The notes under the pieces were generated by a model. It did not search any database. It saw only the letters and a program-made list of their open reading frames with translations, and had not been told where the DNA came from. A DNA stretch of 64,000 nt. Source: Tepidiforma thermophila (GTDB lineage Bacteria > Chloroflexota > Dehalococcoidia > Tepidiformales > Tepidiformaceae). Shown here piece by piece: positions 32,254-57,431 of this stretch (position 1 is its first letter; the number at the start of each line of letters is the position of its first letter). The DNA is taken from NCBI RefSeq assembly GCF_002563855.1, contig NZ_PDJQ01000001.1:2418001-2482000 (forward strand), given 5' to 3'. The translations under genes and the position numbers were made by a program.

Positions 32254-32270
32254 ATGTCCGATTTGCGGGC
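32254..32270 (+). repeat. attL core, 17-bp direct repeat
   Basis: ATGTCCGATTTGCGGGC, identical to 57415-57431 and in the same orientation. It contains the start codon and the next codons of the interrupted gene. Confidence 0.85.
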
Positions 32271-32332
32271 AGTCTTAACAAACGGCCGGTCAGTGAATCT
32301 GAACTAGACAATAAACATTCGCATCGGGGCGG

Positions 32333-32354
32333 TTTGACAGCAATTTGACAGCAA
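32333..32354 (+). repeat. Tandem 11-bp repeats near attL (candidate integrase arm sites)
   Basis: Two perfect head-to-tail copies of TTTGACAGCAA lie 62 bp inside the left end. Related tandem copies occur near the right end (57288-57309) in the same orientation. Paired short repeats flanking the core are typical of arm-type binding sites for tyrosine integrases. Confidence 0.55.
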
Positions 32355-32524
32355 CGAAGGAGAGAGATGAGGGGGCGGCCCGTGCGTGTCTTATGCAATG
32401 CAACGGCGCGCGGGGTGGGCGAATGAGTAGTGGTGCTCTGCCCCAAAATCTCCGGCCCAATCGGCCCAGCCGGCAGAGTGGCGTACGCAGGCGTGCGCTT
32501 CTGCATGTGTGCGTTCCCGGCGGT

Positions 32525-32562
32525 ACAAAAGCCTGGGGCCGGTCCCTTCTCGGAACCGGCCC
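32525..32562 (-). terminator. Terminator of the integrase gene
   Basis: On the minus strand, an 8-bp stem (32555-32562 with 32536-32543) is followed after 7 nt by a TTTT tract. It lies 41 nt beyond the integrase stop codon and would keep transcription from reaching the left attachment site. Confidence 0.55.
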
Positions 32563-32602
32563 AAGTATCGGCCCACACGAGCCCCGGCAAGCGGGCCTGC
32601 TG

Positions 32603-33736
32603 CTAGCTCATCAAGGCCTGAGCGATGCGGCGGACGGCCTTCTCGTCCGCGCCCGGCACAGCGTGAGCGTACGTGTCGAGGGTCATGGAGGGCCGCGAGT
32701 GCCCCAGCAGCGCCGAAGTCTCCCGCAGGCTGACGCCGTTTGCGAGGGCTACCGTCGCGGCGGTATGCCGCAGGTCATGGAATCGGTAGCGGGGCAGCCC
32801 TGCACGCTCGAGCAGCTCGTGGTACCACCTGAGGACGGACCGTTCGTTGAGGTAGTAGCCGTCAGCACGGCAGAAGACGAGGTCGAGTTCGCGCCAGGCC
32901 GGGCCGGCCCGGAGCCGCTCCTCCAGCTGGCGCTGACGGTGGGCGCGAAGCGCGTCGACGGCTTCCTGCGGGAGGGGAATGCGGCGGCGGCCGGAGGCCG
33001 ACTTGGGCGGCTCGATGCGGTAATCACCGGCAATCCTTACGAGTGTCCCTGACACCTGAAGCAATCCGTTATCCAGGTCGATGTCTCGCCAGCGCAGGGC
33101 GAGCAGCTCCCCCTTCCTCATCCCTGTCGTGAGCGCCAGCACGACCAGCGCCTCGAGGGAGTCTCCGCGGGCGGCCTGCAGGAGCCGTCGCGCCTCCTCA
33201 GGCAGCATGGCCCTTTCGGCCCTTGAGCGGGCTCCCCGCGGAGGGGCCAGGTTTTTGGCAATGTTGGCCGGCAGGTAACCCAGGCGGACGGCGTCCCCCA
33301 GGGCACGGTGGATGATGCGATGAAGCATTTGGACCGTGGCCGGAGAGTCCCCTTTCTCGAGCTGCTGGCGGTACAGCTTTTCTAGCTCGAGGGGGTGAAG
33401 TTTCGAGAGCTGGCGGTGGCCGATGTTCGGGAGAATGACGTTCTCAACCCGCTCCCGGTAGGTGCGGAGCGAGGACGGCTTCAGCTGTCGCTCTTTCATT
33501 GCCAGCCACTCGGTGAAGTACTGCTTCACGGTAAGCCGCTCACTTGAAGGCGGGAGCGCACCTTCACGCACCTGAGCCTGCATGGTTTTGAGCAGTTCGA
33601 TCGCCTCCTGCTTCGTCCTTGCGTACGAGTATTTCCGCCTGCCGTCGGGCAGGGTTTTCTGGGCGACCCATTTTTTGGCCCGCCGCGAATCGTTGCGTTT
33701 GTAGACCGAACCCTCACCGTTGAATCGGCGTCCCAT
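32603..33736 (-). CDS. int: Tyrosine integrase of the element
   Basis: A 377-aa site-specific recombinase. It has an N-terminal arm-binding domain (GEGSVYKRNDSRRAKKW), a core-binding SAM-like domain (VKQYFTEWLAMKE, about 68-160) and a catalytic domain. The active site is complete: Arg207 (TTGMRKGELL), Lys245, His320 and Arg323 (FHDLRHTAA), His346 (LLGHSRPS) and nucleophile Tyr356 (LDTYAHAV). It lies at the left end and reads toward attL. Its start overlaps the TubC-N-like gene by 23 bp. It should catalyse integration at, and with Xis excision from, the 17-bp core. Confidence 0.95.
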   Translation of the reverse strand: MGRRFNGEGSVYKRNDSRRAKKWVAQKTLPDGRRKYSYARTKQEAIELLKTMQAQVREGALPPSSERLTVKQYFTEWLAMKERQLKPSSLRTYRERVENVILPNIGHRQLSKLHPLELEKLYRQQLEKGDSPATVQMLHRIIHRALGDAVRLGYLPANIAKNLAPPRGARSRAERAMLPEEARRLLQAARGDSLEALVVLALTTGMRKGELLALRWRDIDLDNGLLQVSGTLVRIAGDYRIEPPKSASGRRRIPLPQEAVDALRAHRQRQLEERLRAGPAWRELDLVFCRADGYYLNERSVLRWYHELLERAGLPRYRFHDLRHTAATVALANGVSLRETSALLGHSRPSMTLDTYAHAVPGADEKAVRRIAQALMS

Positions 33737-34223
33737 TTCTTCCTCCTTCGCTCAAATCTCGCGCTTGTTCCCGGGCGGCTCGCTGCGGTCCACCGAGGTT
33801 GCAGTCACGGACAATCATCGCCATCGCCTTGCGGACTCCGCGGTCGGCGTGCGCCCGCAGGACGTGATGCTCGGTGGAACCGTCTGGGCGGACCACCTTT
33901 ACCAGGACCGAGTCTCGCCCGGGGTTGCGGCTGCAGAGCTCAGTGACGGCCCCGACCGCGGAAGCGGCCTCCTCCGCGGTGCGGGGCCGGAGCGTGCAGC
34001 GGCAGCGGGGCTGAAGCCCAAGTTCGACGGCCAGCCTCAAGAGATGCCCCCCCGGAGGCGGCAAGGTGCGGAGGCAGTCGATGACCTCCTGTTTGTGCGC
34101 TCTGAGCTCCTCGAGGAGAAGTTCTGCCTCGGGTGTATCCGGCACGCTGACATTCAGCTTCTGGCCGTCGGCCAGGGAGACCTTGAGGCCAGCCCCGTAG
34201 CAGCGTTCAAGCAGCTCCATCAC
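33714..34223 (-). CDS. TubC N-terminal docking-domain-like protein of the replication module
   Basis: A 169-aa protein. Its first 50 residues (LLERCYGAGLKVSLADGQK, then ELRAHKQEVIDCLR) resemble the TubC_N docking domain, often found beside primases on mobile elements. The rest is unrecognised, with a CRCTLRPRTAEEAASAV stretch and the basic, low-complexity end expected of a small accessory protein. It overlaps the Prim-Pol gene by 4 bp and the integrase by 23 bp, so the three are one transcriptional unit. A role in replication or partner docking is inference. Confidence 0.6.
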   Translation of the reverse strand: MMELLERCYGAGLKVSLADGQKLNVSVPDTPEAELLLEELRAHKQEVIDCLRTLPPPGGHLLRLAVELGLQPRCRCTLRPRTAEEAASAVGAVTELCSRNPGRDSVLVKVVRPDGSTEHHVLRAHADRGVRKAMAMIVRDCNLGGPQRAAREQARDLSEGGRNGTPIQR

Positions 34224-36724
34224 AGCTCGACTTCTCGGGAGTCCTCGAGGATTGCACCGATGGGGAGCACGAACACCTCCCGCCTGACCCCGCCGATGGT
34301 CTTGCGCACCCTGTTCTTACCTCGGCTCTCGTCAGCAGCGGCCAGGTACCCCCTCTGCTTGAGCGCGCAGCCGAGAGCGCGGCCGGTGTTCACGAAGGGC
34401 TCGCTTGCCGGGGCGGCCTGCTGGGCAGCCTGGAGAGCGGAATTGGGGTCGAGGTAGATGTGTTCGCCGTCGACCCAGCCGATACAGACGCCCTGGGGCC
34501 GCCATTCCCCGCTCATGCCCCCCTCGGTCTCGCGCCAGCCGAGCACTTCGGGCATTTTCCCCGGGCATTTTCCGGAGACATCGGCGATGTGAGCTTTCCC
34601 ACTACCAAGGGCCGAGCGGAGCAGGTCGAGGAACCGCCGCGCGGGGTCGCTCTCCCGCTGGGCGGATGCCTGGGTCGCAACGCCCTCCTCCAGCGCTGCG
34701 ACGGCTTGCTTCAAAAGTTCATCGGCCTGGGCCTGGGTGAGGGCGCCGGCCTGAACGCAGAACTGGAGAACAAACCGGACGGTGACCTCAAGGGCGGCCT
34801 GAGCTGATGCCGTTCGTCCATGCCGGCCTGCAGCAAGCTCGCTCCTGCGCTTTTCGAGCAGGTCTTTCGCCATCACGCGGATGGCCCCCCAGTCTGCGGC
34901 GAGCCATTCCAGCCAGCCGGCCATCCAGCGGGCGAGGGCTCCATCGGCCGCGAGCCTCTGAAGCTCTGTCAACCGGCCGAGGTCCACGTCGCTAGGCTCG
35001 ACCTCGCCCACCCAGGTGCGCGCTCGGAGGCTGTGGCCGGGCGGGATGTCTTCGCCCGTGCTGAGAATGAGGCAGCGAGGCGGCCTGCCGTTTTGGAGTC
35101 TGGCATCCCTGGTGAGCCGCTGCCGGCCTGCCCGGTTGCCGGCGCCGCGAAGCAGCTGCTCGGCGTGGCGATACAGCTGCGTCACGTCCTGCGGCGACCC
35201 GACCGGGACGAAGTCATCGACCACCAGCACGCAGTCTTTTGCCAAGAAGGCGAGCGTCTCGAGGGCGTTCGCGGTCGACCGCCAGCTGGCAGGCAGGTTC
35301 CGTGCGTTCATCCCGGGGCCATAGAACTGCTGAACGAGCGCAGCCAGCTCGGTCTTCCGAACTCCGCTTGGTCCTGCAAGGTGGACAGCGAAGTCAGGCT
35401 CGAAAAGGGTGGGCAGGAAGGCCGCAGCCAGGAGCGTCCAGCTGATGCGCGGCGGCGCGACGTCGAGCAGCCTGGGGAGCACCTCCTTGATGTCCCGGCG
35501 CAGCTCTTCGGGAGACGGGGGGTTCGGCAGCGCAAAACGCTGAAGGTCGGCTGGAGGCCTCGTCAGGACGCCCTCGGCGCCGACTGCGCCGGAGGCGTGC
35601 AGGAAGACTTGACGGCCGTCAATCTCGCGCCAGCCAAGGTGGGCATAGACCCGGACCTCGGGCACGTCTCCGGACAGCTGCTGGATGGCGGCACGGAGAT
35701 GGTCGCGGACCGAAGGACCCGGGAAGACGATGGCTGAGGCTCCGAGGCGCTCGAGGGGCCAGTCCATCTTCTGGAATTCCGCAGCGCTGAGCGTAAAGCT
35801 CTTCGCCGCCCCGTTGACGGCGGCCTCGATTTCGAACTCGCGCTGCTCAAGCTCGCCGTCGTCGATGATTAACTCTCTCCTGATGCGTGCCGAGAACGTG
35901 GCAAGCTGTTCGAGGTCCTGGGGGCCGCCGTCCCTGGTCCTCCGCCGCCACGTGCCCCTGTCGTCGGCGAAGTACTCGATGGGTGTTTTGGGGGCCGCGG
36001 CAGCCGCGTCCAAAGGGCCCTCAGCCGGGTAGCGGGCGATGGATTCCGCAATCCGGCGGACCTCATCATCGGGGAGCGGCGGGACGCAGCGCGCGGCATT
36101 GATGGCGAGCAGTTCCGCCTCAATCCCCGCCTGCAAAAGTCCCCGGCGGCGCAGCCGGCCGGCCAGGCTCGCCAGGCAGTCGTTCCGCTGGCCCTCTCGC
36201 ACCGGCCCGCCCTCCAGCTCGCGGTAGAGCGGCGCCCTGCGTGCGCCGGCGGCCTCGAGGAGCCACGCCGGAATAAGAGCCAGCGGCAGGCGTTCGGTGC
36301 TGGCCTCCACCGCGTACGGCCGGCCGCTGGGGTGGACCGACGGCGGGGCGACGACGTAGCCGCCGTCGCCCTTCAGGTCGACACCAGGGGCGAGCTTCCG
36401 CGAAGGGACGGGGCCGTCCGCGGCGAAGTAGTAGTGCGCTCCCCCGCCGCCGGTGAGCACGGTATAGGTCTCGGGATGGCCGCCGGCGTCGGTGGGTACG
36501 CCCCAGCCGCCGTGCTCAGCCAGCAGCCGCTCAAGGGCCACGTCGCCGCCGTTCCGGGGGTCGATATCCAGCACGGCGAGCCCCGAGGGGGCGCCGGTGG
36601 CGATGCCGACGTTCGCCTTCGGCCAGCGGCGCCACCAGGCCTCGATGGCGGCCGGGTCGGTGGTGGCGTCGTGGACGCCGTGCTCGGTCAGCGGCTCCTT
36701 GCCGCGCGGCTTGAGCGGGAGCAC
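34220..36724 (-). CDS. Prim-Pol primase-polymerase with helicase-type ATPase
   Basis: An 834-aa replication protein. It has an archaeo-eukaryotic Prim-Pol domain with catalytic DxD at 53-55 (AVLDIDPRNGG), HYYF at about 97 and GVDLKGDGGYVVAPPS. A PriCT-like helical region follows (about 180-232). The ATPase has Walker A AGPSGVRKTE (451-458) and Walker B CVLVVDDFVP (about 498). The GTG at 36724 is only the first usable codon in this frame. The conserved start of the domain (ALAYARRGWKVLPL) continues upstream without any ATG, GTG or TTG, so the real start is probably the ATG at 37236 with a frame change. Together these domains would prime and unwind the element's DNA. Confidence 0.82.
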   Translation of the reverse strand: MLPLKPRGKEPLTEHGVHDATTDPAAIEAWWRRWPKANVGIATGAPSGLAVLDIDPRNGGDVALERLLAEHGGWGVPTDAGGHPETYTVLTGGGGAHYYFAADGPVPSRKLAPGVDLKGDGGYVVAPPSVHPSGRPYAVEASTERLPLALIPAWLLEAAGARRAPLYRELEGGPVREGQRNDCLASLAGRLRRRGLLQAGIEAELLAINAARCVPPLPDDEVRRIAESIARYPAEGPLDAAAAAPKTPIEYFADDRGTWRRRTRDGGPQDLEQLATFSARIRRELIIDDGELEQREFEIEAAVNGAAKSFTLSAAEFQKMDWPLERLGASAIVFPGPSVRDHLRAAIQQLSGDVPEVRVYAHLGWREIDGRQVFLHASGAVGAEGVLTRPPADLQRFALPNPPSPEELRRDIKEVLPRLLDVAPPRISWTLLAAAFLPTLFEPDFAVHLAGPSGVRKTELAALVQQFYGPGMNARNLPASWRSTANALETLAFLAKDCVLVVDDFVPVGSPQDVTQLYRHAEQLLRGAGNRAGRQRLTRDARLQNGRPPRCLILSTGEDIPPGHSLRARTWVGEVEPSDVDLGRLTELQRLAADGALARWMAGWLEWLAADWGAIRVMAKDLLEKRRSELAAGRHGRTASAQAALEVTVRFVLQFCVQAGALTQAQADELLKQAVAALEEGVATQASAQRESDPARRFLDLLRSALGSGKAHIADVSGKCPGKMPEVLGWRETEGGMSGEWRPQGVCIGWVDGEHIYLDPNSALQAAQQAAPASEPFVNTGRALGCALKQRGYLAAADESRGKNRVRKTIGGVRREVFVLPIGAILEDSREVEL

Positions 36725-37236: not shown

Positions 37237-37264
37237 GGCTTTCCTCCTTCCAGATGCGATGTTT

Positions 37265-37453
37265 TTAGGAAGCATTTGCGGAGCTCAGCTGCTCGGCAAT
37301 GAACGTCTCAACCGCTGTTACCGGAATAAGACGCCGCTTGCCGACCTTGAACGACGGAAGCTTGCCTGACTTGACGAGCCTGTAGGCAAGAGTCCGGCTG
37401 ATGCCGAGCAGCCTGGCAGCTTCCTCGACCGTGCACGTGAGGCGATCGGCCAT
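37265..37453 (-). CDS. Excisionase-like helix-turn-helix protein
   Basis: A 62-aa winged-HTH protein of the excisionase/MerR-type HTH_17 family. It has CTVEEAARLLGISRTLAYRL (helix-turn-helix, residues 6-25) followed by SGKLPSFKVGKRRLIPV, the wing. Such proteins bind next to attachment sites and steer tyrosine integrases to excision. Start chosen at the ATG behind AAAGGAGGTGA, a near-perfect ribosome-binding site; the frame extends 15 codons upstream without support. It is the first gene of the minus-strand xis-primpol-int unit. Confidence 0.85.
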   Translation of the reverse strand: MADRLTCTVEEAARLLGISRTLAYRLVKSGKLPSFKVGKRRLIPVTAVETFIAEQLSSANAS

Positions 37454-37498
37454 GGCTCTCACCTCCTTTCGGAGAGATGCTTCGTTCCAGCAAGGCAC

Positions 37499-38478: not shown

Positions 38479-41400
38479 TCACGAAGCCGGCTGGGGGGCA
38501 GGATGTGCGACGGAGGGGTCGGCCGGGGGAGGGTCGAGGAGTGAGGTGTAAGGGGCGCGGCATGCTTCGGCAGCGGCCATCCGGTCGTAGGCCTCGAGGA
38601 CGAGGCGGGCGGTGCGGTATTCGCCGAAGCGCTCTTCGTCGTGGCGTTTGACGATGGGGAACTGGTCCAGGATGTAGCTCACGGCATCGCGCGGCGCCGG
38701 GAAGAGGGCACGGAGCTCCGGGCTTGCCTGGGCCTGCCATTCGTCCTCGCTGCCGAGATAGAGGCGGAAGAAGCAGGCATCGAGCTCGGCGCGGAGGCGG
38801 GCACGGCGTTCGGGGTCGTAGCGGAAGGGCGGGCCGTGGTAGCCGAGGTCGCGGGCGAAGGGGGCCAGGTCCCAGGCGGTATAGGTGAGCTCGAGGATAC
38901 GGGGGCGGAGCCAGTCGGCGATCGAATATGAGTCAAGCCACGGGCAAACGTTGGCCAACAATTCTGCTGTGATGGCAGGAAGCTGCTGAAAGATGAAGTA
39001 GTTGAGGTTCATGCCTCCCACCTTTTGGCGGGCGACGAAGTCCAGCACCTGGGCGGACAGGATTGTGCTGAGTAAGGGTGCAGCATCCTCGGCTGCGAGC
39101 GCCAACGGGAAGTTGTTGCCGACGGCGACGCGGGGGATGACGGCGGAGATAACGGTGCGCTCGTTGGTGGCGTTGGTGATATTCCGCCAGCCGAGCAGCC
39201 AGCCGCGCTCCCAGCGGCCGGCGAGGCGGGATTCGACTTCGCGCTCGTGCACCCAGTAGCGGGGAAGGACGGTGTAGCCGGGGTCGCACTTCGCGGCGTC
39301 GGGGACGTCTTCGGTGGCGCCGGAGTCGTTGTAGGTGGCCCAGCGATGGTCGAACTGGTGGACCAGCTTGGCCTCGTAGAGGGGGAGGTAGCGCTCGTCG
39401 CCGCGGACGAAGAGATTGCCGGCGAGGCGGAAGCCGGCGTCCTCGAGCTGTTCGCGGGTGCGGAAGAGGCCGGAGTCAGTGTTCATCATGAACATGAGCA
39501 AACCCTTGAAGCCCCACGGGTTGCCGGCATCGCCCCTGGTTTCATCGACCAGGACGGGGACACGGCGGTAGATGTGGCGGGTGAGCTCGGCGTCGCGCCT
39601 GGTGCGGAAGACCGGCGCGGTGCGGGTATTGGGGTTAAGGAGGCGGAAGTCCTCGGGGGTGAGGGTAAAGCGACGCTCGGGGTCGGCGAGGTCGGAGATG
39701 TCGTGGCAGAAGAAGGCGAACTCGGCGGCTGCCGCGGGACGGGCCTGCCCCGTGAGCGTGAGAATGGCGAACTTCATCCGGCTGTCAACCGCCGGGAACA
39801 ACTTTCTCCGGTTCTCGAAATCGTAGAGGCTGGCGAGCTGGCGACGTTCCACGATGTGAGCGAAAAAGTTCTGGGTGAACGCGTCAGTAGCAATACCTGT
39901 TGGAACAATTAATCCCGCATATCCGGCCGCATCACAAAGACGCAAAACATTCTCGGCAAACAAAGGTGCAAGATTGATTCTGCCGCGACTCGTCAGAGGG
40001 AATAGATCAGAGCTATGTACGAATGATTGCAAGCCTTGTATGTAATGAATGGCACCGATGTATTGCTTGAAGAGGCTATGGTCTTCTTCCGAGAGCTTGG
40101 CCAGCATTCGCTTACGAACGGCCATGCTAGGAGCTTCGGCGATGTCCGGCCGGGTCGATGCAAAGAACTCGCGGTCGTCGAGCTGAACCTGCTCCCAGGG
40201 CGGGTTGCCAAGGATGACGTCGAAGCCCCCAGACCAGCCTGCCTCGGGGTTGTCGGAGGTACCGTTGACGCTGCGGAACACCTCGGGGAACTCGAGGTGC
40301 CAGTGGAAGAAGCCGAGTTCGCGGGCGAGGTGCTGGACCTGGTCGCGGAGGGCAGCCGGCACGAGCTCAGGGTTGCGGGCGAGCCGACGGAGGACGTCGG
40401 TGGTGATGGCCTCGGCCCCTTTCTGCTTTGGAAGGAAGAAGGCAGCGCACCAGGCGTCGGCGACCAGCCTGGCGTGCTGATAGGCCTGGCCGTGGATGAG
40501 TTCGTGGAAGGCGGATTCCTTGGCTGCAAGCTGGTCGGGGGTATCGTCGGGGGCCTCGGCGAGGCGCCTGGCTGCCTCGGTGAGCTCGCGGACGTCACTG
40601 GAGAGGGCGTCATCGAAGGTGAGCTGGAGGGCTCCATGCTGGAGCCGTTTGCGCTCCTCACGGTTGCGCTTTTTGAGGGCGCGGGCGGTCTCGCGGTCAT
40701 CAAGGGCGTGGGGTTCGTAGGCTTCGTCGGGGATGCCGGAGGCGAGGAGGGCCGGGGTGACGCCGATGAGGCTGTTGCCGCGCCTGATGTGGGCATCGAG
40801 GAAGGAGAGCGGGCGGCCAGGCTCGAGGGCCTCGAGCCAGAGGGAGACCTTACAGAGTTCGACGGCCATCTCGTTGACGTCGACGGCGTAGATGCAGTGA
40901 GAGACGACGTCGCGGAGGGCGTGACGAACCGCTTCAGGGGAGGGTTCGGGGTCCCCGGTGCGGACTGCGGCGAGCCGGCGAGCGATGCGGTGGGCCGCTG
41001 CGACGAGGAAGTGCCCGGAGCCTGAGGCCGGGTCGAGGACCTTGAGGGAGAGGATGGCGGCCTCGGGGTTGCTGGCACGGGCTCGTTCCTCGAGGACTGG
41101 CTCGAGGGCGGTATCGAGCAGGGCCTGGACGAGCTGGGGAGGGGTGTAGTAGCTGCCGGAGGTTTTCCGTTCGTGCCCGGCCTCGACGCGAAGCTCGAAG
41201 GTGCCCTGGTCGATATTAAGTTCGGGCCGGAGTTCGAGGAGGGACTCGTAGACGCCGCCGAGCTCTTCGCTTCCGAGGTTGCGGTAGTCGACCGCGCGGA
41301 CGGTCCCTCCGTCGCTGACGCGGGCCAGGTGGCCAACTGCCCGGAGGAGAACGTCGTTGGAGAGGCTGCAGGCTTCGAGGTGGGGGATGGCGCGTGGGGA

Positions 41401-42530
41401 CCAGAGGAAGCTGCCGAGCGGAGGGAGGGCGAGCCCAGGTTCGCCGGCGTGGGCATCGAGGGCGCGCATGACGACCTTCAGGCCTTCCCAGAGGTCGCCG
41501 TGGCGGGGTGAGACACGTCGAACGGAGAGCCGGCGGAGGCGCTGGGTAGAGTAGAACCTGGTGTAGCGGTCACGGGCCTGGGGGTCGGCGTCGGACGCGA
41601 AGAGGACTTCACGGTCTTCGGCGGCGAAGAGGAAGATGAGGCGGTAGACGAGCCGAAGGAGCTGGCGGTAGTAGTCCTGGCGGTCGAGGGTTCCTGAGCG
41701 AAGTGCTTCGCGAAGGGCGGTGTTGGATGGATGGGCGAGGAATCCGGAACCGAGCGCCTGGAGGGCATGTTCGACGCCCTGGCGGAGGGCCTCGAGGGCG
41801 CGGACGCCCTGCTCTCGGGCTGATTCGCGCCAGCGTTCGAGGATGCAGGATTCCGGGGGCTCGCCTTCGAGACGAGACTGGTGACAGGTGAGCCAGAGGA
41901 GGGCGAAGTCGGCATAGCTGTCGCCATCGAACATGGCGGCCAGGTCGAACTCAACGTAGGACTGGCGGGTCAGGGAGGTGGAGTCGCGGAGGAGGCGAAG
42001 CGCCTGGCCGTTGGATACGAAGCCGTAGAGCCGCTCTTCTGAGCGGTTGAGGAGCTCCTGGACGAGGCCGTGAGGACTCTGGGAGGCCGCACCTGCCAGG
42101 CCTTTGGTGCGGCGGTCGAGGTCGACGCCCCAGCCGAGGAGATGAATGGGGACTGGGCCCCAGCTGTGGGAGACGGGGTAGGAGCGGCCGTCAATCTCGA
42201 TGGCCCTGGACGTGGGCAGCCTGCCGTAGCCCAGCTCGGAGAAGAGGGGGAGCAGCCAGCGCTCCCGGGTCAGCGTGGTGAACGACTCGCCCTGCCCGGG
42301 CTGGCTTTGCTGGCGTTCGAGTTCATCCCTGAATGCGCGCCAGGTGCCGACGAGCCTGTTCCAGGAGCGAGTGATGGCCTCGCCGAGGCGGTCGCCGGGG
42401 GAGAGGTGGTAGTCGCCGGGCTCGAGGCCACCGAGGGACTGGTCGTTGGCAGCGATTCGTGCGAGGAGGTCTGGAGGCAGGATGCCGCCCTCGGTGCGGA
42501 TGGTTGAGAAGAGCTGGTTGCGGGCGTTGC

Positions 42531-42534
<4 letters not shown>
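38479..42534 (-). CDS. Eco57I-type adenine-specific DNA methyltransferase (DISARM DrmMI-like)
   Basis: A 1351-aa methyltransferase. The N-terminal 450 residues are of the large RM-methylase type. The catalytic core then has GSYYTPP (about 460), SAM-binding motif I DPASGSGHFLVAAA (501-514), DVNEMAVELCKVSLWLEAL (about 553) and N6-adenine motif IV NPPWE (777-781). A long C-terminal target-recognition-like region follows. Last gene of the operon; its ATG overlaps the helicase stop by 4 bp. In class 1 DISARM a similar enzyme marks self DNA. A patch around 39,890-40,060 is much AT-richer than the rest of the gene. An orphan or type IIG role is less likely given the helicase partners. Confidence 0.88.
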
Positions 42535-45380
<2,846 letters not shown>

Positions 45381-48300
45381 TTTTGGAACACCCCTTCCCA
45401 CGTGTCCTGATCGCTGCCAAAGCGGACCACGGTCCAGCCTTCGTCCTCAAGGCGACGCTCAGCCTCTCGGTCTCTGGCGGCCACGTCAGGGTACTGGTGA
45501 ACCGGTCCATCAACGAAGACTGCCGTGAGGCTGTCATCGTAGGTGAAGTCAGGCCTCGCATCTGCTGCGGGGATATGTTTCTGGGCCCTGGTTGGCAGGG
45601 TCAGCCCAAGTTCATCAACAAAGCGCAGCCACTGGCGTTCGAGCTCGGTCTGGCAAAGGTTCAGGAGGGCCTGGAGGTGCTCGTGGCGAGGGGTGGCGAC
45701 GGGCGATGGCTCGGCCCTGGCCCCGGCCAAGTCGAGGAGAAAGTCACGGACGCACTGCCGGTCAAGGAGTCTGTGGTCGGGCTGGTTGGTGTAGCTCATG
45801 AGGCAGTCGTAGCAGGCTGCCTCGCAGTTCTCGCTGGCATGTGGGGCTTTTCCGAGGTCTCTGCCGTCATCGGGGTCAAAGTGGCAAATCTCGAGGGCGC
45901 GGCGGGCGACCCGGCTCATTGCTTGAGTATCAGCGACAAGCCTTCGGAGGACGCCGGCTCCGCCTTCGGCGGCTTCGTAGAAGAGCAGTAGATTGCGCTT
46001 CTCGCGGCGGGGCAGCGGTTCGACAGCAAGCTCGGATTCCTCGAGCTGGAACTCTACCTGTATGGCCCGCTTCAATGCAGCCGCCAGTGAGGCCATGAAC
46101 TGGACATCCTGGGGGGTCACAGGTTCAAACAGAAGTGCGTTGCGGCGGTCTTCTACGTAGGGCACCACCCTCTGGCGAGGCCGTTCCTGCTTTTCCTCTG
46201 CATCATCGGACTCATCTTCGCGCCGCTGCCAGGTGCCGCGCTCAGGGTCAATCCAGAACCCCACTCCAGCCGTGCTCTTGCGCCGTCTCCAGCCGAGGTT
46301 AATCCGCCAGAGGGTCGCGGCGCCGCTGTAGGTAAGGGTTGCGAGTTTCTCCTCGTCCTTGCGCACCTCAGCAATCCTGGCCCGAGTAGCACCGGCCTCC
46401 TCAGCGAAGCGGATGCCGGTCTGCACGTCGTAGCCAACCCGAACGCGCTCCTCCTCGTCGGAGGTAATCCGCTCGCGGCGAACCGTGGAGACATTCTCAA
46501 GGCGGAAAAGGCTATCGATGGGGGCGTCGAGGAGGCGGTCACAGCGCTCGCAAAGGTCAGGTCCGGGGGGTTCGGCAATAAGGTGGAGGTAGCCGCACTC
46601 GCTGCACTGCTTCGCCGAGCTGGTGATGAGCTTTCCGTCAAGAGTTCTGCTCGGCGGCAGAAGGACCCGGCTGATAACGTACCTAGCCCCTTCGTGGTAG
46701 ACGATGCCGCGGGGCCCGAACTCCTCAATAGCCAGGAACCTTGGGCGTGAGAGAAAGTCGTCTTGCCCCTTGGTGCCGCGCCGGCCGGGGATAAATGCGG
46801 AGAGCGGGAGCCGGGGGAAGTTGTACCCGGGCAGGAACCCCTCGCTGGCGAAGTAGCGATAGCTGTAGAAATCTGACTGGTATGTTCGGTTTCCAGCAGT
46901 ATCAGCGCGGAGCAGATCAAGCTGGGATTCGGCCTCGGCCCTGAGCCGCTTGGCACGGTCACGGTCCTGCCTGGAGCGTGAGGCGTCCCCGATGATGCGA
47001 TTCTGTTCCTCTCTGGTGTTGAGCGCTGCCCGGTAGAGGGAGCGCCAGCGGTCACAGGCGGCGTCGAAGCTCGTGAGGGCCCTGCTGAGGACTTCATCGA
47101 GCCAGCCTTCGTGGTACCAGTCCGCTTCCTTAAGGCCAGGAACCGTGTCCAGGATGCTGGCACACCTCGCATTCGCACGCTCCCTGGCCGCGGGATTGGC
47201 CAGAGCGTTTCTCAGTGAGGCCTGGAGTTCCAGGGAAGGCGCTTCGCCGGACACGTCGAGGACATCGGCCATCGACGACCCAAGGTCCTGGCCGGTTTCG
47301 GCCAACCAGACGGCGTGGACGTGAGCCTTGAGGAGGTCCTCATTGGCAAGGTCAAGCTGGGGAGGCAACACCTGGCCGGCGACCATTTCCACGGGATGAT
47401 TGAAGAAGTACTGGTCGTGAGAGCTGGTAGCTGAGCAGTAGGTAAAGACCAGGGCTGGCTGGCCCCGCCTGCCGGCACGGCCGCTGCGCTGGGCATAGTT
47501 GGCCGGGGTTGGGGGAACATTACGGAGATTCACCACATTGAGTTCGGCGATGTCGACCCCAAGCTCCATGGTTGGCGAACAGAAAAGCACGGGAAGCCTG
47601 CCTTCCCTGAAAGCCTTTTCGCGGAATTCTCGGACTCCTGACTGGACCTGGGCGGTGTGCTCCCCGGCCATAAATCCGACCATCGTGTCCGCAACCTGCC
47701 GATAAAGGTCGACAAAATACCGATTTGCGCCCCTGGGGGTCTCATTTAAGAGGGTCACCCGCAGGGGGTCATGCATGGGTCTGGTGCCATCGCCGGCCAA
47801 CCAAACCATCGAAGCGGCTGAGAGCTGGTAGCCGGGAGCAGCTTCATCCCGGTCATCGACGACGTCAACCAGCCCGCCGATGCGAAGGACCTTAAATAGG
47901 TCCGCAATGACCGCCTCGACTTCCCTTTGACTGAGAGCTGGACGACCTGAGCTGCGGTTGAGCCTTCTCAGGTACTGCCCGAACAGGCTCCTCGACGAGA
48001 TAAAGACGTGCCTCCAGTCCTTATCGTCGCCGTTGCGGCGGGGGCCGGGGTAGGCTACTGATGCGCTCTTGAGCTTTTCGTCTTCGTCGAAAGCCCAAGG
48101 GGCTGCCAGGCGGGAGTCAGACCTCTGTTTTATCCGCTCCAGATAGCCGGACTCGAGGTAGTTGACGCTAATGGCCAGCTCGCGGCGGAGAAGGTCGAGA
48201 AGTACCCGCGATACTTCCTCTCGCTCGTTGGGAGTCGCCCCGGCGAGCGCGGGGTGAAGGCTCTGCCAGTCCCTCTCGCTGGAGCAGAGTTCCGCCAAGG

Positions 48301-50591
48301 AGAGGTACTCGAACCTCAAAAGCCCGCACTGCTCAAGATTTGGTGCGGTGAGCCGCCAGCCTCGCTCGAGGTCGCGATAGAGGCGATAGCCGAGGACGTC
48401 CCGGAGCGCCTGGGCAGCCTCGTCTCTCGCGGCAAACCCCTTCTCGGGGTCCTTTGCATACTGTTCATACGGTAAGGAAAGGGCCTTGAAGACAGCCTGG
48501 GTTAGTTCGTCATACCTCAGGCCTTGGGGCCCGGCCTGAGAGACCGCCCTGTACAGCGCTGAGCGAAGCAGGCCAACCTGAACAAAGTCGTTGAAGTGTC
48601 CTGCCTGGAGCGAGGCGTCCTGCCTGTTATCGGTGAAGCTCAGAACCTTCCTGGCTTCCTGCGGAAGGTCGGCGGCATCCTTAAGGCGGCGCAGTGCTTC
48701 GGCGACCAGGATAGTCGTCGCAGAAGCCCTGCCACCCTCACCGATGGTCGCGAGGCGGGCGTAGTCCTGCCTTTCCTTCCCCTCGTAGGACACCCCGCAT
48801 CGGAGACAGAACGGAATTGGCGAGGGAATGACCAGGACTTCGCGGCCGTCTGGTGAGGGCTCTCCGTTCGCCCCCACGCGGCGAGCGCGGGGGAGCTTGC
48901 TCCGCCGGGCTCTCAGGACGTCTCCAGTCGAAGGGTCGACCCAGGAGTCAGGAATGCGCTCTCGGTACGCATCTGGTGCTTCATCAGGGTCAGGCAGGTA
49001 CAGGTAAGCAGCACCCTCGCCTCCTGACCGAGGGTCCCTAGGTTCGAACGTGGTCGGTGACACATCGCCGGACTGGAACGAGACATTGTCGTTCGCCCCC
49101 TGGGCCGTTTCGACAACCGAGTAGTACTCCTGGCCACATTCTCGACAAAACGCGAGAGGGAAGAGCAGCCTTGACCGGTCGCCAGGAACATACTGCTGCT
49201 CGCGAAGGGTCAGATACCGGGATTCCGGGGGTTCGAGCGAGGCGTAGACGGTATCGCCCCTGGTGAAGAACTGATGCAACCGAAAGGCAAACATGGGCTG
49301 GCCCGTCTCTGGATTGAGGACACGGAACCCGGAAGAGAGGATGGCCTCGATCGCTTGTGCACATCGTTCGGGGTCGAGGCCTGTGAGCTCGGCCAGCTCG
49401 GCTGCGAGGCCGCCGTCCTTACGAATCGTCCGGGGCTTGGCCCTCCGCAAGTGCTGGCCCTTTTGCTCGATTCCCAGTTTTTCTTCAACCCAGCAGGCAA
49501 GGGCGTTTCTCCTCAGTTCCTCGGCTGAGGCAGGGACCGACCCGGATTCGACGGCGCGACGAAGCTCAAGGACGAATGCGGGGTCCGACATGTCCCGTTG
49601 GTCGGTGACGCGTTGGAGGGTTTCGAGGATGACGCTGTTGGGCCCGACGGTGGTCCCAAAGAGAAGCGTTGCGACTTCGGCGACACGCTCGCGCTGTTGC
49701 TTGAGGTCGTCGACACCTGCGAGGGTTGCCGAAGTTCCGATGCACTGCAGTTGGCGAGCTTCGCAGGCCTCCCGGACCCGCCTCACGAGCATGGCCACGT
49801 CGGCGCCCTGCCTCCCGCGGTAGGTGTGGAGCTCGTCCAGAACCAGGAATCTGAGGCCGCGTGCAGCCTGGACAAGGGGCCGCTCGAAGGGCCGGGTCAG
49901 GATGAGCTCCAGCATGACATAGTTGGTGAGCAGGATATCTGGAGCATTGGCGACAATTTCCTGTCGCTCTTCGTCCGACTCCTGACCCGTGTACCTCTTG
50001 TAACGGACGGGCCCCTGACCTCCAGGGAACCCAAGCTCGAGGAACTTATGGAGTTCGCCAGCCTGGCTGTTGGCCAGGGCGTTCATGGGGTACACGATGA
50101 TAGCCCGGATACCTTTACCGGGGCCTTCTCGCAAGATGGCATCCACGATTGGAATGAGGTAGGCAAGGCTCTTGCCTGAGCCGGTGCCGCTGGTGAGCAC
50201 GTAGCTTTCGCTGCGCCTTGCGACCTCTATAGCTTCGATTTGGTGCTGATAGAGCCTCAGTGGCCTGCCAACAGGGTCATGCTCGCTTTTATCCTTGCGG
50301 AAGATGCGGCGGCACTCCTCGTGAAGCAGGCCACGGTCCACGAGCGTGTCAATGTCTGCCGGCGTTTTGAAGCCAGGGTTTAGCTGGACCAGTGCTTCAG
50401 GCCAGAGCAGCCCTTCGCTGAGGGCCTGGTCAACGACTGCCCGAATTCGGTCATCCCGGATAGTCAGGAAGCTCTCTACGAAGTCGCGATACTCCTTGAC
50501 CAGGCTATTCCGGAGGGAGAAGACGTCCATGGCTGCTCCAGGTGACGGAAAAGTCTGAGCCCGAACGAACAGTACCGGGATTCTAGCGGCA

Positions 50592-50623
50592 AACAGGGCA
50601 GAGGGCAGCGTGCCTGCCCTGTT
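50592..50623. repeat. Perfect 10-bp inverted repeat upstream of the defence operon
   Basis: AACAGGGCAG (50592-50601) pairs with CTGCCCTGTT (50614-50623) across a 12-nt loop. It lies 62 nt before the giant helicase start and could be an operator, a leader hairpin or an old terminator. No promoter hexamers close by are convincing. Confidence 0.5.
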
Positions 50624-52405
50624 CAGACCCCCGGGCGACACTGAGGACCCCAGCCGGAGTCAGTTCATCGCACCTTACTGGAGTTCCCCGAGAGGGCTGG
50701 GCGAGGAGAGCCGGCAGGGACGCGCCGGGAGCTAGCAGGCCTGCCCGGGGGCCGAGCATTCCCTGACGAGGTGGCCGAGGCAGTGGGTTTTCACCGGTCC
50801 GCTGGCCCAGGCGCAAGCCTTCGCCTTGGTCGACGATTGGGAGACCCGCAGCGTCGAGGGCCGGCATCGACCCAATGGCCGAAGGGGCATCGGCTGGCCA
50901 CCAGAGTCGAGTTATCGAGATAGAGCCCGTGGACAGCGATGTTGTCCGGACTTTCTCGTACACACTGTTGAGCTGTCGATATGGGCTGGGCATGGCATTT
51001 CGGGGGAAGCCGGCGCCGCTGGCTGGCGACCGCTGACCGGTTCGGATGCTCGAGGGAAGCCATGCACTGCCCGCCGGCATCAGGGGCGGCTTGGCAGGGA
51101 CGTGTCGCGCCACATTGGGTCCAGCCACCCGGCTGCTCGTCTACTCAAAGCAAGTGCCGGCAGAGCCGCCGCCGGCTGAACGCGAGATGAACTGCGCACC
51201 ACCAAGGAAGGTCTCCACGCTTCGCCAGGGCCAAGGCCTCGGCCGCAGCGAACCGGCCAGACGCCTTGGCCCGCCATCCACGGTGGCATAGAAACAGAAC
51301 TTTTGGCCACTTGAGCCTCCCTGGCGAAGCGGCCTGCGGATTAGTCGGCTGAGAGGGCAGGGGAACCCTTCGCCACAAAGGGTTTGGTTCGACAGCCACT
51401 CATGGAGGCCAGCCCGGTCGGCTTCGAAACGTTCAGCAGCGCTCGGCCAGGGCACAGCCGACACCGGGTGCTGGACTCGGTTTCTGGGGCTGGCGGATAC
51501 CGGGCCGGAAGCACCGCAGCCGCGAGAATGGGCGGACAGCGGCAGCGGCACGCGAATACACCCCGGAAGTGGAGCCAGATGGCTGGCATCCAGCCGTCTG
51601 CGACAGGGGGAAACTAAACCTTGCGTACGGCGAGCCGTCAGACCATGACTCAACCGCCATCGCCAGGGCGGCCACCGAAAGGGTGAATGGCTCCGCCGAC
51701 CGGCAACGGTACGCCCCGGACATCGGCCTTCGGCTGCCGGTGAGGAGCCGCGGCCCTTTGCAAAGAGCCGCGTCACGCCGCAGCGGTCGGGCAATCGGTC
51801 GCCTGCCGGTCGTCAGCGACGCCCAGCCGGCCGGATGCTCGGCTGCGGTTCGGCCATGGGGCAGGGAGAGTGGAACGAACTGCAGGCGCCGTTGGGGGTG
51901 CAACGGCCGATCGTGGCGGCCGGAAGCTCCTGGTTGCCGCAATCGACCCGGTCTTCTGTCGGCTCTTTTGTGGAATGCGCTGCCGTGGTTACCGCACCTC
52001 ACGGGGGTACTGAAGGTAAATGGAGAGGCGGGGCTGAAGCGTGACACAGCTCCCCAAAAAGAGCCCACTGCGCTGCGTCCGGGCAACGAAGCGGGGCCGC
52101 GGGGTGGTAACTGCTACCGGTAACAAGGTTCTCCTAGCGGTGGAGTCAAATTTGCGCCCAGGCAGGAGGCAAGCCGCCCGCCCCGGGCGCGGCCCCTGGC
52201 GCAGACGAAACAAGATGGCCAACAACCTCAAACATGCGTCAGAGACCTAACCGGCCTTCAGAGAGGCACCAGCCCAGTAATCCCCGGCGAATTGCGCAAA
52301 GCCTCTCTTGGACCGGCGAGCTGCCCAAGGGGACCGGGGGAGGGGGCTTCCCCTTAAGCCCCATCGTCGGACGCGTGGTACCCCCTCAGCCGTGTTCGAA
52401 CCCCC
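50624..52405. other. 1.8-kb gene-free region of the element
   Basis: No credible gene is seen. Overlapping frames of 60-220 codons exist in all six frames, with Arg/Pro/Ser/Gly-rich products, no conserved motifs, no ribosome-binding sites and no codon-position bias. It might be decayed sequence, a regulatory region or a structured RNA. No transposase remnant or tandem repeat was recognised. Confidence 0.5.
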
Positions 52406-52981
52406 TCAGGCCTCCTCTTCGTCGGCTTCTTCCTCATCCCATTCGGCAGCAGACTTTTCATCCCACGCCTTCGATCCCCTTGACCTGAGACGCTCTAAAA
52501 CCTCGCTGACAATCGGTTCGTTGCCCACGACCGTATATTCGCCGACCGGCAGGCAGTCTACGGCTTCACGCCAGTCGAGAGAGTCAGAAGCTTCGCCGAA
52601 GTCCATGTAACTCCCGTCGTCCAAAACCACCCCAATCTTCTCCGCATCGCACCAACTAGAGTTGTAGAACCTTCCTCGGTAAACTGTCGCTTCCACGTAA
52701 GGCGAGTAGTCGTCTCCGTTGTGCAGACGCCACCTAGCGACATCCAGAGAACAGTCCGACATTTCTCTCATCCGACCACCAATGACCTCAGCTCTAACAA
52801 AAGGGTCGGGATGGAAGCAAGTATCAAGCACGGTTTCGAATCCGAATTCATCGATGAGACGCAGAGCTACCTTCTTAGGATCGTCTGAATGAAGCAACCA
52901 GCCAAAATCGTCAGCGATAAGCTCGGCCAATTTTTCAGGAGTCATGCTGCTTTTAAGGTCTTCGGTTCTCTCGCCTGACAT
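52406..52981 (-). CDS. Hypothetical acidic protein of the element
   Basis: A 191-aa protein of unknown function. It is mostly soluble, acidic and ends in a run of Glu/Asp (EWDEEEADEEEA). The first half is helical (MTPEKLAELIADDFGWLL, VALRLIDEFGFETVLDTCF), with a HEAT-like PDPFVRAEVI motif. The second half is strand-rich (VYRGRFYNSSWC, IGVVLDDGSYMDFG). Codon use is much less GC-biased than the neighbours, which marks it as recently acquired. GGGGAA precedes the ATG. It could be an accessory or immunity-type protein, but nothing proves it. Confidence 0.75.
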   Translation of the reverse strand: MSGERTEDLKSSMTPEKLAELIADDFGWLLHSDDPKKVALRLIDEFGFETVLDTCFHPDPFVRAEVIGGRMREMSDCSLDVARWRLHNGDDYSPYVEATVYRGRFYNSSWCDAEKIGVVLDDGSYMDFGEASDSLDWREAVDCLPVGEYTVVGNEPIVSEVLERLRSRGSKAWDEKSAAEWDEEEADEEEA

Positions 52982-54225: not shown

Positions 54226-54378
54226 CTAAGCCGACTGGCCGTTCTTCCTGTCCTTGTCCTTCTCCTCCTTCTCCTGCTCCTCGCTCGCAGCCTCGTCAGG
54301 CTCCTCTGCCCGGGGGCCCATCGGTATGAAGATGGCTCGCCGGTAAAGCTCCTGCAGCTCCTTTTCCTTCTCGTCCAT
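54226..54378 (-). CDS. Small, highly charged 50-aa protein
   Basis: A 50-aa reading frame behind a strong GGGAGGTGGT ribosome-binding site, 5 nt before the ATG. The product is very rich in Glu and Lys: an EKEKELQELYRRAIF helix at the start, a short PMGPRAEEPDEAASEE linker and a Lys/Glu-rich tail. It has no membrane segment or recognised domain. It lies alone in a gene-poor part of the element. Such proteins can be regulators, anti-restriction mimics or chaperone-like factors; none of these is shown. Confidence 0.6.
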   Translation of the reverse strand: MDEKEKELQELYRRAIFIPMGPRAEEPDEAASEEQEKEEKDKDRKNGQSA

Positions 54379-56056
54379 CGTGACCACCTCCCGTCGAGTT
54401 GGAACATGGTCCGGAGAACCGGGACATCCGCAACTGCGACATTTAGGCGACAGTTTTCGCGAACGCCGGTCCGCCGTAGGCCGGTATTCTCGCTTCTCCC
54501 CGGCTCGTGGTCAACGCGCCGAGGGTGACTGCCAGAGTCGGATATGAGCAATCGTCCATCGCTATCAACATCGCAAATCTATCCGCAAGAACATTCCTTA
54601 CAGAATGACTACAATTAGAAAAATCAGGAATGGAACTACTTTAGATGCGTATAAAATCTTGAATAAGCGATCGCTTCTTTCATGGAAGGAAGGCTGGAAG
54701 TTGAGAAATACTGCTCAGAAGTTGAACAAGACATTACCAGATGCCAATCAAACCGTGAGTCGGGCGGCAATCTCGCAAGAGCCTGCCTTAAGCGCACAGC
54801 CCAGGCAGCGGCCGAAATCGCCGGGCAAGCGGGCGCCTGGGTTCCTGCCTTCGGCCACCCTGCGATGCCAGGTCCCAGACCATGAGCATGCACGTGTGCG
54901 ACCTCAAGATCTTCTCCAAGCGCGGCCCCCGACGACGCAGTCGCTCGCGCTCTTCCGGAGCGCGCGAAGCGAGGCATGCGGGAAGCCGCCGTGGAGGACA
55001 GGGACTGGAGGCGGGCGACACGTCCGCAGGAGCGGTCCAGAGCATTATCGCCAGGGGCAAGCGTCTCGGTACCCGCCCGTGCGGGCTCTTGCGTGGTCCT
55101 GGCGCCCACCCATCGACGCACGCTAGGGCGCACTTCTTCATCCTGACGCGCCCATTGTTCAACCCGGAGGTTGGCGTCGACCTTGCCAGGGGAACCGCCG
55201 TGCTTCGTCCTCGCACCTGGCACCGAAGCGGCCAGAGCCATCGAAAGCGCAGGCGGGAGTGCACGACTGGGCGAGATGCAGACGTGCGCCGAGCTATGGC
55301 AAGAGATGGCTGCGTCTGCCGCCATTGGAGAGGGGGCGACGATGATGGCTGTCGGACCCTAACCGATACGGGACGCTACGACGGCGTCAATCAGGTAGCG
55401 TCGTTCAGGCCGCAGTAAGTTCGCTTGGACTAGTTCGATGGCCGGACGATGGGCAAACGCCCTCGGGCCGACGTGCAAAATTCGCGGCACCGCGACGGAC
55501 CGTCCGCCATGGCGGCGCCCGGCGCCGCACACGCTGGAGCTGACGCAACCGAGAGAAGGAACAGGCAGCCGCAGCCCGGCGAGTGTCCCGGGCGGCCAAG
55601 CTCGCTATATGAGTCAGGCCCAGGATTAGCAGCCGAGTCGCGGCATCGCCTCTCCTGGAATGTGCGGATGTTGCGGCCAAAGCGCCACGACTTATCGGCG
55701 AGATGCCGGGCAGGCGCCCAGGCGCATCCCGCGCGCGGGCAAGGCTCGATAAGCGATCATGCTCTGACCGCTCCGGACTCGGAAACCCTGCATGCCGGAA
55801 TGCCCAAACCTTGTTAGCAGCCGTTGGCGGGCCGGGAACAACAACCGCTCCCAACCGTCCCCATCGTCTGGACGTCGAGGCGCGCCGGTGGCGACCTCGA
55901 GCAAGCGACGCGGGCCGCGACGTTCGAGAGCGCTGAGACTGCCAGAGGCGCAGAGGGGAGAGGAGCTATAAGGCGTCGACCCCGGGCCGGTATCAGCCCC
56001 TGGCCTCCAGGCAGCCAGATATGCCCAGGCCTCAGGCCGTCGCCGGGGCGAGCAGG
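54379..56056. other. 1.7-kb gene-poor region with an AT-rich patch
   Basis: Most of the stretch shows no credible gene. The interval about 54,560-54,770 is strikingly AT-rich for this window and contains the perfect 12-bp palindrome AAGCGATCGCTT (54665-54676). A frame from 54605 starts with normal-looking residues (MTTIRKIRNGTTLDAYKILN) but decays into low-complexity sequence, so it may be a gene remnant. An origin or a decayed insertion is possible. Confidence 0.45.
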
Positions 56057-56596
56057 CTACCGGCACTCCGGGGGCGCGAAGACCACGAGCCAGGTCATTG
56101 TGACCTCACTCAGCGTCGCCTCGAAAAACCCGTAGTAGCCGCCAACCATTACGCCCGGACCACCCACATTCCAAACACCGTCACCGACGTAGGTGGCATC
56201 AAAAGACACCGGCAAGACAGTCACCGCACTGCCCTGCTGGACACAGTCCCCAAAACGGCGATACGCCGCTTGCCGAACCTGCTCCGCTGTCAGGCGGGGG
56301 CTCGGAGTCGCGGCCGGCATCGGAGTCGGCGGAGGTGGAGGGGGCGGCGGAGGCGGTGTCGGCGTGGCGGTCGGCGGCTCCGGTGTCGCTGTTGCCGTCG
56401 GGGTGAAGGTCGCGGTCGGCGTGGGGGTGGACGCCAGAGGTGTGCCGGGACCGGGCGATGCGGCCGACGCTGCAGAGACCTGGGTGCGAAGTTCTGCGAC
56501 CTCCTCCCGAAGGGCCAGCAGTTCCTCGCTGTCATCGTCGCAGGCAGCCAGCACGGCCGCAGCGAAAAGCAGCGAAATGACAGCACCAAAGCGCAT
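56057..56596 (-). CDS. Lipoprotein with coiled-coil and Pro/Thr-rich linker
   Basis: A 179-aa exported protein. A signal peptide ends in the lipobox LAAC (Cys19), so it should be lipid-anchored outside the membrane. A short heptad-like helix follows (SEELLALREEVAELRTQVS), then about 45 residues of PT/PP repeats and a C-terminal domain of about 75 residues (VRQAAYRRFGDCVQQG...GVWNVGGPGVMVGGYYGFFE) that I cannot name. The start at 56596 is chosen from the signal peptide; the longer frame upstream is unlikely. As element cargo it could be a surface-exclusion or phage-blocking factor, but that is speculation. Confidence 0.72.
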   Translation of the reverse strand: MRFGAVISLLFAAAVLAACDDDSEELLALREEVAELRTQVSAASAASPGPGTPLASTPTPTATFTPTATATPEPPTATPTPPPPPPPPPPTPMPAATPSPRLTAEQVRQAAYRRFGDCVQQGSAVTVLPVSFDATYVGDGVWNVGGPGVMVGGYYGFFEATLSEVTMTWLVVFAPPECR

Positions 56597-57287
56597 AGTC
56601 GGGATTGTGCGATCGGCATCCAAGGGGCACAAGGGGGATGGCTCCGCTGATGCGGTGAGACGCCACGAGAACGCCGCTGCCTCTACCTTCGAACCCTGGC
56701 AGCAGCCGGGGGAGTCCTGACCGTCACATGGGCCGAAATGGCGGCACCGGGGGACACCGTCCCGCAATGCCGGGGCGCCGACGACGGAGCTGGGGAAAAG
56801 GTCATCACTGAGAGATCTGTGCCGCCCGGCCTCCCGGGGCTGATGGCCCATTCAACGCCCGTGACCCAAGGCCGGGGCCAAAGCCTGGCACGGGTGACCC
56901 TCCAGGGCAGGGCAGCAGGGCCCGAAAGGACACAGGCGGGCAGGGGCGTCACGCGACCGGGCTCGATAGCCACTCGGCGCTAGGGCGGCCGCATCGTCAG
57001 AGCTGTCCGTCAGCACCGCCGCCGACGGTCGGGTCTGCCGGCGGCGCCGACCGCGGCAGTGGGCCGGTTGGGCCTGTCGTGGGCCGGTTCTCGGGGCGGA
57101 ACCGACCCAGAGGTGGAGTACCGCGGTGAACGCGGCGGTACCGCCATGGCCGCCGGGAACCTACCCACCTGGTCATTGGGCCTGTTGGGCCGGTTGTTTG
57201 ATGATACCACTCGCTCCTGGTGGCACTTCGAGGGGGCTGCGTCGCGCGTTTGAAGCCGCCGGATAGGGGCCCGACCGGGGGCGAGCC
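56597..57287. other. Gene-free right end of the element
   Basis: No gene is supported between the lipoprotein and the right-end repeats. The last part (57061-57195) holds repeated nonamers, described separately. The rest is GC-rich with no frame of credible composition. Confidence 0.5.
57061..57195 (+). repeat. Iteron-like 9-bp direct repeats near the right end
   Basis: GGGCCGGTT occurs at 57061-57069, 57081-57089 and 57187-57195. The variants GGGCCTGTC (57070-57078) and GGGCCTGTT (57178-57186) are adjacent, so two clusters of head-to-tail copies lie about 90 bp apart. Such spacing suits protein binding sites for an excisionase, integrase or replication initiator. Confidence 0.5.
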
Positions 57288-57309
57288 GGTGACAGCAGTT
57301 TGACAGCTA
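57288..57309 (+). repeat. Tandem 11-bp repeats near attR (candidate integrase arm sites)
   Basis: GGTGACAGCAG followed directly by TTTGACAGCTA, related to the perfect tandem TTTGACAGCAA pair near attL and in the same orientation. They lie about 105 bp inside the right core repeat. Confidence 0.5.
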
Positions 57310-57328
57310 CACGGGCGGATTTTAGGGT
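57300..57328 (+). promoter_or_regulatory. Element-borne promoter facing the interrupted chromosomal gene
   Basis: TTGACA (57300-57305, perfect -35), a 17-nt spacer and TAGGGT (57323-57328) lie 87 nt upstream of the ATG at 57415. The -35 lies inside the 11-bp repeat. A GAGAGAGGT ribosome-binding site then precedes the gene. It would replace the gene's native promoter, left behind at the other end of the element. Confidence 0.45.
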
Positions 57329-57414
57329 ACCGACGCGACCATAACGAGACGGGCCGACCCGCCGTCTGAATCTGTGGTGAACAATAACGAACTAAGAGAG
57401 AGGTACATCACAAA

Positions 57415-57431
57415 ATGTCCGATTTGCGGGC
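57415..57431 (+). repeat. attR core, 17-bp direct repeat
   Basis: ATGTCCGATTTGCGGGC, identical to 32254-32270. It is the 5' end of the coding sequence beginning at 57415. Confidence 0.85.

What the first reader, a model, noticed from the sequence alone, without database searches (positions are those of the whole stretch)
32254..57431. A 25-kb element integrated at the start codon of a protein-coding gene, swapping its promoter
The 17-bp core (ATGTCCGATTTGCGGGC) occurs at 32254 and 57415 and is the beginning of a coding sequence, not a tRNA. Left of attL a promoter (TTGAAG-N17-TATTCT) and a ribosome-binding site lead to an ATG whose frame dies after 17 codons. Right of the element the same codons continue into an intact gene with an element-supplied promoter (TTGACA-N17-TAGGGT) and ribosome-binding site. 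Integration therefore keeps the protein but exchanges its control region.
Basis: partly seen in the sequence, partly recalled or inferred. Interest (0 to 1): 0.85.

Follow-up and report, generated by a model that had tools for sequence, protein, structure and literature searches.

The report
Defence island replacing a gene's promoter
A 25-kb mobile DNA element carrying anti-phage genes has inserted exactly at the start codon of a small bacterial gene, so the protein is unchanged but its promoter and ribosome-binding site now come from the element; this is solid, but similar promoter swaps are already known at two other genes.

Summary
An exact 17-bp repeat (32254, 57415) occurs only twice in the 2.74-Mb genome and bounds a 25.2-kb element with a tyrosine integrase beside attL, an excisionase-like HTH protein, a primase-polymerase and a DISARM/Druantia-like defence cassette. 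Genus-mate G005 has the empty site: the present left flank runs directly into the gene. The native promoter (TTGAAG-N17-TATGCT) is kept in all four unoccupied congeners and now lies stranded at attL. The gene (92 aa, NTF2-like fold) is intact and starts behind element DNA.

Correction: the proposed element -35 (TTGACA) lies inside TGACAGCANTTTGACAGCNAC. In 61 genomes this motif occurs only at the ends of this element and its relatives in G004, and once in viral contigs, beside a distant integrase. It is probably an integrase arm site, so the promoter is plausible but unproven. Sister species G004 keeps the swapped junction although attL is lost. There the motif-plus-TAGGGT block is the best-conserved stretch of the right 2 kb, and the gene is under strong purifying selection (dN/dS 0.02).

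The mechanism is known (SXT/prfC; IMEVchUSA3/dusA). New here: the integrase, target and element, and a join exactly at ATG.

The parts
32178..32206 (+). Native promoter of the target gene (TTGAAG-N17-TATTCT), stranded left of attL
   Evidence: TTGAAG-N17-TATGCT conserved directly upstream of the gene in G001, G002, G003, G005; coordinates
32238..32247 (+). Native ribosome-binding site
   Evidence: GGAGCAGGAG; GGAGCAGGAG also in G005
32254..32270 (+). attL core (start codon and first codons of the target gene; frame stops after 17 codons)
   Evidence: exact repeat; frame
32335..32355 (+). Left arm-like site TGACAGCAATTTGACAGCAAC
   Evidence: motif only at ends of these elements in 61 genomes; same motif beside a distant integrase; conserved in a second, otherwise diverged left end in G004
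32603..33736 (-). Tyrosine integrase (377 aa)
   Evidence: PF00589 6e-27, PF14659; phrog_1 integrase
34220..36724 (-). Primase-polymerase (Prim-Pol, PriCT_1, DUF927)
37265..37498 (-). HTH_17 protein, candidate excisionase
   Evidence: PF12728; excisionase PHROGs 66 and 2907
38479..42534 (-). Eco57I-type adenine methyltransferase, DrmMI-like
42531..45401 (-). SNF2-family helicase, DpdE/DrmD-like
45347..50641 (-). Large DEAD helicase with MrfA Zn-binding domain, DruE-like
57290..57310 (+). Right arm-like site TGACAGCAGTTTGACAGCTAC, contains the proposed -35
57300..57328 (+). Candidate element promoter TTGACA-N17-TAGGGT
   Evidence: in the most conserved 66 bp of the right 2 kb between G000 and G004; not called by the generic scan; activity untested
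57395..57403 (+). Element-supplied ribosome-binding site AGAGAGAGG
   Evidence: AGAGGTA.ATCACAAAATG kept in G004; coordinates
57415..57431 (+). attR core
57415..57693 (+). Target gene, intact, 92 aa, NTF2-like fold
   Evidence: conserved with the same start in the family; dN/dS 0.019 against G004; fold
57690..58052 (+). Paralogue of the target, overlapping by 4 bp, probable operon partner
   Evidence: 39% identity to the target; conserved neighbour
58062..58562 (+). SixA-like histidine phosphatase, probable operon partner
   Evidence: PF00300, TIGR00249 just below cut-off

Best explanation
A tyrosine-integrase element integrated by recombination between its attP and a chromosomal attB made of the start codon and first codons of a small NTF2-like gene. 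Because attP carries its own ribosome-binding site and the same ATG plus codons, the protein is unchanged. The native promoter is left at attL, and the gene and its likely operon partners are now expressed from signals inside the element's right end (candidate TTGACA-N17-TAGGGT overlapping an integrase arm site). Shown: the junctions, the empty site, the displaced native promoter, gene intactness and purifying selection. Inferred: that Int made the junction, that element signals drive transcription, and that excision would restore the native state.
For: Exact 17-bp repeat only at the two ends; intact integrase and HTH_17 protein inside; empty site in G005 and native promoter in four congeners; arm-like motif at both ends and nowhere else in 61 genomes except the related elements of G004, and beside a 39%-identical integrase in a viral contig; G004 has the same swapped right junction, RBS and conserved 66-bp block, and an intact gene with dN/dS 0.019; all credible element genes run leftwards, so read-through into the gene is unlikely; experimentally shown precedent at dusA (PMC8409611).
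Against: No transcript data. The -10 is weak, the -35 lies in an arm site, and the generic scan calls no promoter. Only two genomes carry the junction and they may share one event. G004 has lost attL, so mobility is not shown there.
Confidence: 0.8

Rival explanations
1. Integration silences the gene. The element supplies a ribosome-binding site and ATG but no working promoter, and TTGACA is only an integrase arm site. The gene would be off while the element is in place and on after excision.
For: The -35 is inside the arm-like motif; the same TTGACA at the left end has no -10 behind it; TAGGGT is a weak -10 and the scan finds no promoter; expression of dusA dropped after integration in the known case.
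Against: The gene is intact in both occupied genomes with dN/dS 0.019. In G004, where attL is gone and precise excision seems impossible, RBS, TAGGGT and surrounding block are conserved.
Confidence: 0.14
2. The 17-bp repeat is not the attachment core; the boundaries arose by other rearrangement and the repeat is chance or a short duplication.
For: A repeat of 17 bp or longer arises in about 1% of shuffles; the related G004 locus is mosaic, with a type III-A CRISPR island and no attL.
Against: Exact position at ATG with an integrase alongside, the G005 empty site joining precisely at the core, arm-like motifs at both ends, and a related left end in G004 that starts at the core's TTTGCGGGCA.
Confidence: 0.03

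Closest known systems
IMEVchUSA3 and other dusA-specific integrative elements (PMC8409611, PMC4482086)
   Same: Tyrosine-integrase element at the 5' end of a protein gene; brings a new promoter so the host gene stays expressed (lacZ fusion in PMC8409611)
   Different: Different target and cargo; there the element also changes the N-terminus (61% identity over 35 residues), here the core starts at ATG and the protein is unchanged; mobilisation by IncC has no counterpart found here
SXT/R391 ICEs at prfC (Hochhut and Waldor 1999, as cited in PMC8409611 and PMC4344509)
   Different: SXT is a conjugative element; no conjugation genes were found here; different target and an unchanged protein
KplE1 IntS/TorI module (PMC2951348)
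   Same: A promoter overlapping an att region with integrase-binding sites
   Different: There the promoter is the integrase's own; here it would be the host gene's, and regulation is untested
DISARM / Druantia / Dpd defence systems (PADLOC models)
   Same: Adenine methyltransferase, SNF2 helicase and large DEAD helicase with MrfA Zn-binding domain; hits to DrmMI, DpdE/DrmD, DruE
   Different: No complete known gene set; proteins hit models of several systems, and the NCBIfam DrmD hit is below its cut-off

Membership tests
5'-end-targeting, promoter-supplying integrative elements (the dusA / prfC kind) | Tyrosine integrase at one end of the element | tested here: met
   32603-33736, PF00589
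5'-end-targeting, promoter-supplying integrative elements (the dusA / prfC kind) | att core within the 5' end of a protein gene, with an empty site in relatives | tested here: met
5'-end-targeting, promoter-supplying integrative elements (the dusA / prfC kind) | Reading frame of the target kept after integration | tested here: met
   92-aa frame intact, aligned start in the family
5'-end-targeting, promoter-supplying integrative elements (the dusA / prfC kind) | Element-supplied promoter drives the target | tested here: inconclusive
   candidate conserved in G004, not called by the scan; needs transcript mapping
5'-end-targeting, promoter-supplying integrative elements (the dusA / prfC kind) | Excision restores attB | not testable with these tools
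   no reads or cultures
SXT/R391 ICE | Integration in prfC | tested here: not met
   the target is a 92-aa NTF2-like protein
SXT/R391 ICE | Conjugation genes | tested here: not met
   no such domains among the large element proteins scanned
DISARM | Complete drmA-drmB-drmC plus methyltransferase set | tested here: not met
   only three genes, with best hits to DrmMI, DpdE and DruE models

The most novel reading that the evidence does not exclude
The host gene's new promoter is built on the integrase arm site, so integrase or excisionase bound at attR would repress or time the host operon, coupling expression of a chromosomal operon to the element's recombination state.
Probability: 0.12. Interest if true: 0.65.

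Novelty: new member of a known kind. Interest (0 to 1): 0.4.

Why it matters
It adds a clean, comparatively supported case of start-codon integration with promoter exchange, with a target, integrase and element unlike the known prfC and dusA systems. Occupied and unoccupied congeners are in hand, as is a sister lineage where the swap persists after attL was lost. It also gives a concrete, testable overlap between an integrase arm site and a host promoter.

Tried and rejected
Target as tRNA/tmRNA or another known RNA: none. G004 as an empty site: rejected; it carries the same right junction with different cargo. G004's second element copy as a clean second target: not usable, since it lies in an island at tRNA-Met and its right end is lost before the arm motif. 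The two further related integrases in the same genome as a rule for start-codon targeting: they do not follow it; one sits about 15 codons into another gene, the other at the 3' end of a crotonase-like gene. Profile search of the target against solved structures gave one weak hit only. Genome-wide scan with the integrase returned mainly Streptomyces integrases at 33-37% identity, too distant to transfer att sites.

Full report
Observation. The sequence ATGTCCGATTTGCGGGC is at 32254-32270 and 57415-57431, identical for exactly 17 bp and no further, and nowhere else in the 2.74-Mb single-contig genome. At the left copy the frame reads MSDLRAVLTNGRSVNLN*. At the right copy it opens an intact 92-aa gene. 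Repeat length alone is modest evidence: a repeat of 17 bp or longer appeared in 3 of 300 shuffles of the same two regions. The context makes it decisive.

The element. Between the copies lie 25.2 kb whose credible genes all run leftwards: a tyrosine integrase next to attL, a primase-polymerase and an HTH_17 protein matching excisionase families. Then comes a three-gene cassette of methyltransferase, SNF2 helicase and large DEAD helicase, resembling parts of DISARM, Dpd and Druantia. No relaxase, FtsK or phage structural gene turned up among the proteins scanned.

Empty site. Six genomes of the genus carry the gene. In G005 the homologue of the window's left flank (28350-32252) runs straight into the homologue of 57415-60039. 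In G001, G002 and G003 the neighbouring HD-domain gene is missing, but native upstream DNA with TTGAAG-N17-TATGCT still precedes the gene. That promoter is therefore ancestral, and its copy now sits stranded at attL. Many more distant family members also show a TATGCT or TATCCT box upstream of the gene. The unoccupied congeners differ from the core at 5 of 17 positions, which may limit the element to the G000/G004 lineage (inference).

A sister species with the swap. G004 has the same right junction. Its upstream 5 kb matches window 52324-57414 at about 80%, its core reads ATGGCCGATTTGCGGGC, and the start signals are kept. Its left side is different: the attL core is absent and the space holds a type III-A CRISPR island with a DUF1156 methyltransferase and a helicase. 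The gene is 98% identical in protein, with dS 0.50 and dN/dS 0.019. If the insertion is shared, this selection acted under the new upstream region. Genes in the shared right end have dS 0.3-1.0 against 0.3-0.5 for flanking genes, so shared descent is plausible but not proven.

The promoter. The left end holds TGACAGCAATTTGACAGCAAC. Allowing one mismatch, TGACAGCANTTTGACAGCNAC occurs four times in 61 genomes: both ends here, the right end at the G004 gene, and the left end of a second related element in G004; reversed-pattern controls gave none. In IMG/VR it occurs once, at the 3' end of a 39%-identical integrase gene. It is best read as an integrase arm site (inference from position and distribution). 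A second motif, TGAATCT...ACAATAA, also lies near each core. A promoter may still be there: TAGGGT sits 17 bp from TTGACA, and the 66-bp block from the arm through TAGGGT and beyond is the most conserved of the right 2 kb between G000 and G004 (97% against 80%). The generic scan calls neither the native nor the element promoter.

Target. The protein is conserved in its family and has no Pfam or NCBIfam match. A moderate-confidence model (pLDDT 76) resembles NTF2-like proteins, TM about 0.6, with no match better than E = 0.001. It is followed by a paralogue and a SixA-like phosphatase, so the exchange may affect three genes.

Comparison. Integration of IMEVchUSA3 into the 5' end of dusA supplies a new promoter, shown with a lacZ fusion at reduced level, and an altered N-terminus; the same paper states that SXT does this at prfC (PMC8409611; see also PMC4482086). 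The present case works like these but is not one of those families. Its distinguishing points are a join exactly at ATG with the protein unchanged, and the overlap of arm site and putative -35. KplE1 shows that integrase can repress a promoter overlapping an att region, there its own (PMC2951348), which makes the novel reading testable.

Verdict. It is a new member of a known kind, of moderate interest.

Noticed in passing
38479-50641: Three-gene defence-like cassette (DrmMI-like methyltransferase, DpdE/DrmD-like SNF2 helicase, DruE-like helicase with MrfA Zn-binding domain) that matches no single catalogued system fully.
   Followed up: partly
32452-32584 and 57061-57193: The two ends of the element share an imperfect inverted repeat of about 133 bp (64% identity) rich in GGGCCGGTT hairpins; purpose unknown.
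   Followed up: no
32294-32314 and 57367-57387: A second shared motif TGAATCT-N7-ACAATAA lies near both cores in the same orientation, possibly another recombination-protein site.
   Followed up: no
53000-56000: About 3 kb of the right part has no convincing gene, no Rfam match and no repeat array, yet aligns with G004 at about 80%.
   Followed up: partly
L155, L148, L149 (G004:C1 about 2367976-2404887): A second copy of window 32262-52229 (81% identity) lies inside a larger island bounded by a 45-bp repeat at tRNA-Met; the site is empty in the window's genome.
   Followed up: partly
L052 and L053 (G004 target locus): The same insertion site in G004 holds a type III-A CRISPR system plus a DUF1156 methyltransferase and helicase, so the site looks like a defence hotspot.
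   Followed up: partly
L150 (G000:C1 about 2626544-2644720): A second element with a 56%-identical integrase is inserted about 15 codons into another protein gene, splitting it.
   Followed up: partly
L152 (G000:C1 about 1067813-1069010): A third related integrase (61% identity) lies next to the 3' end of a crotonase-like gene, whose TAC TAG end lies in the core it shares with the second element.
   Followed up: partly
30718-32154: The HD-domain gene left of attL is present in G000, G004 and G005 but missing at this place in G001, G002 and G003.
   Followed up: no
32178-32700: The stranded native promoter now points into the element, antisense to the 3' end of the integrase gene; it could lower integrase expression.
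   Followed up: no
L013, L016, L020 and others, upstream of the target homologue: Native leaders in several family members share TTACCGRCCGG just before the ribosome-binding site, possibly a regulatory site.
   Followed up: no
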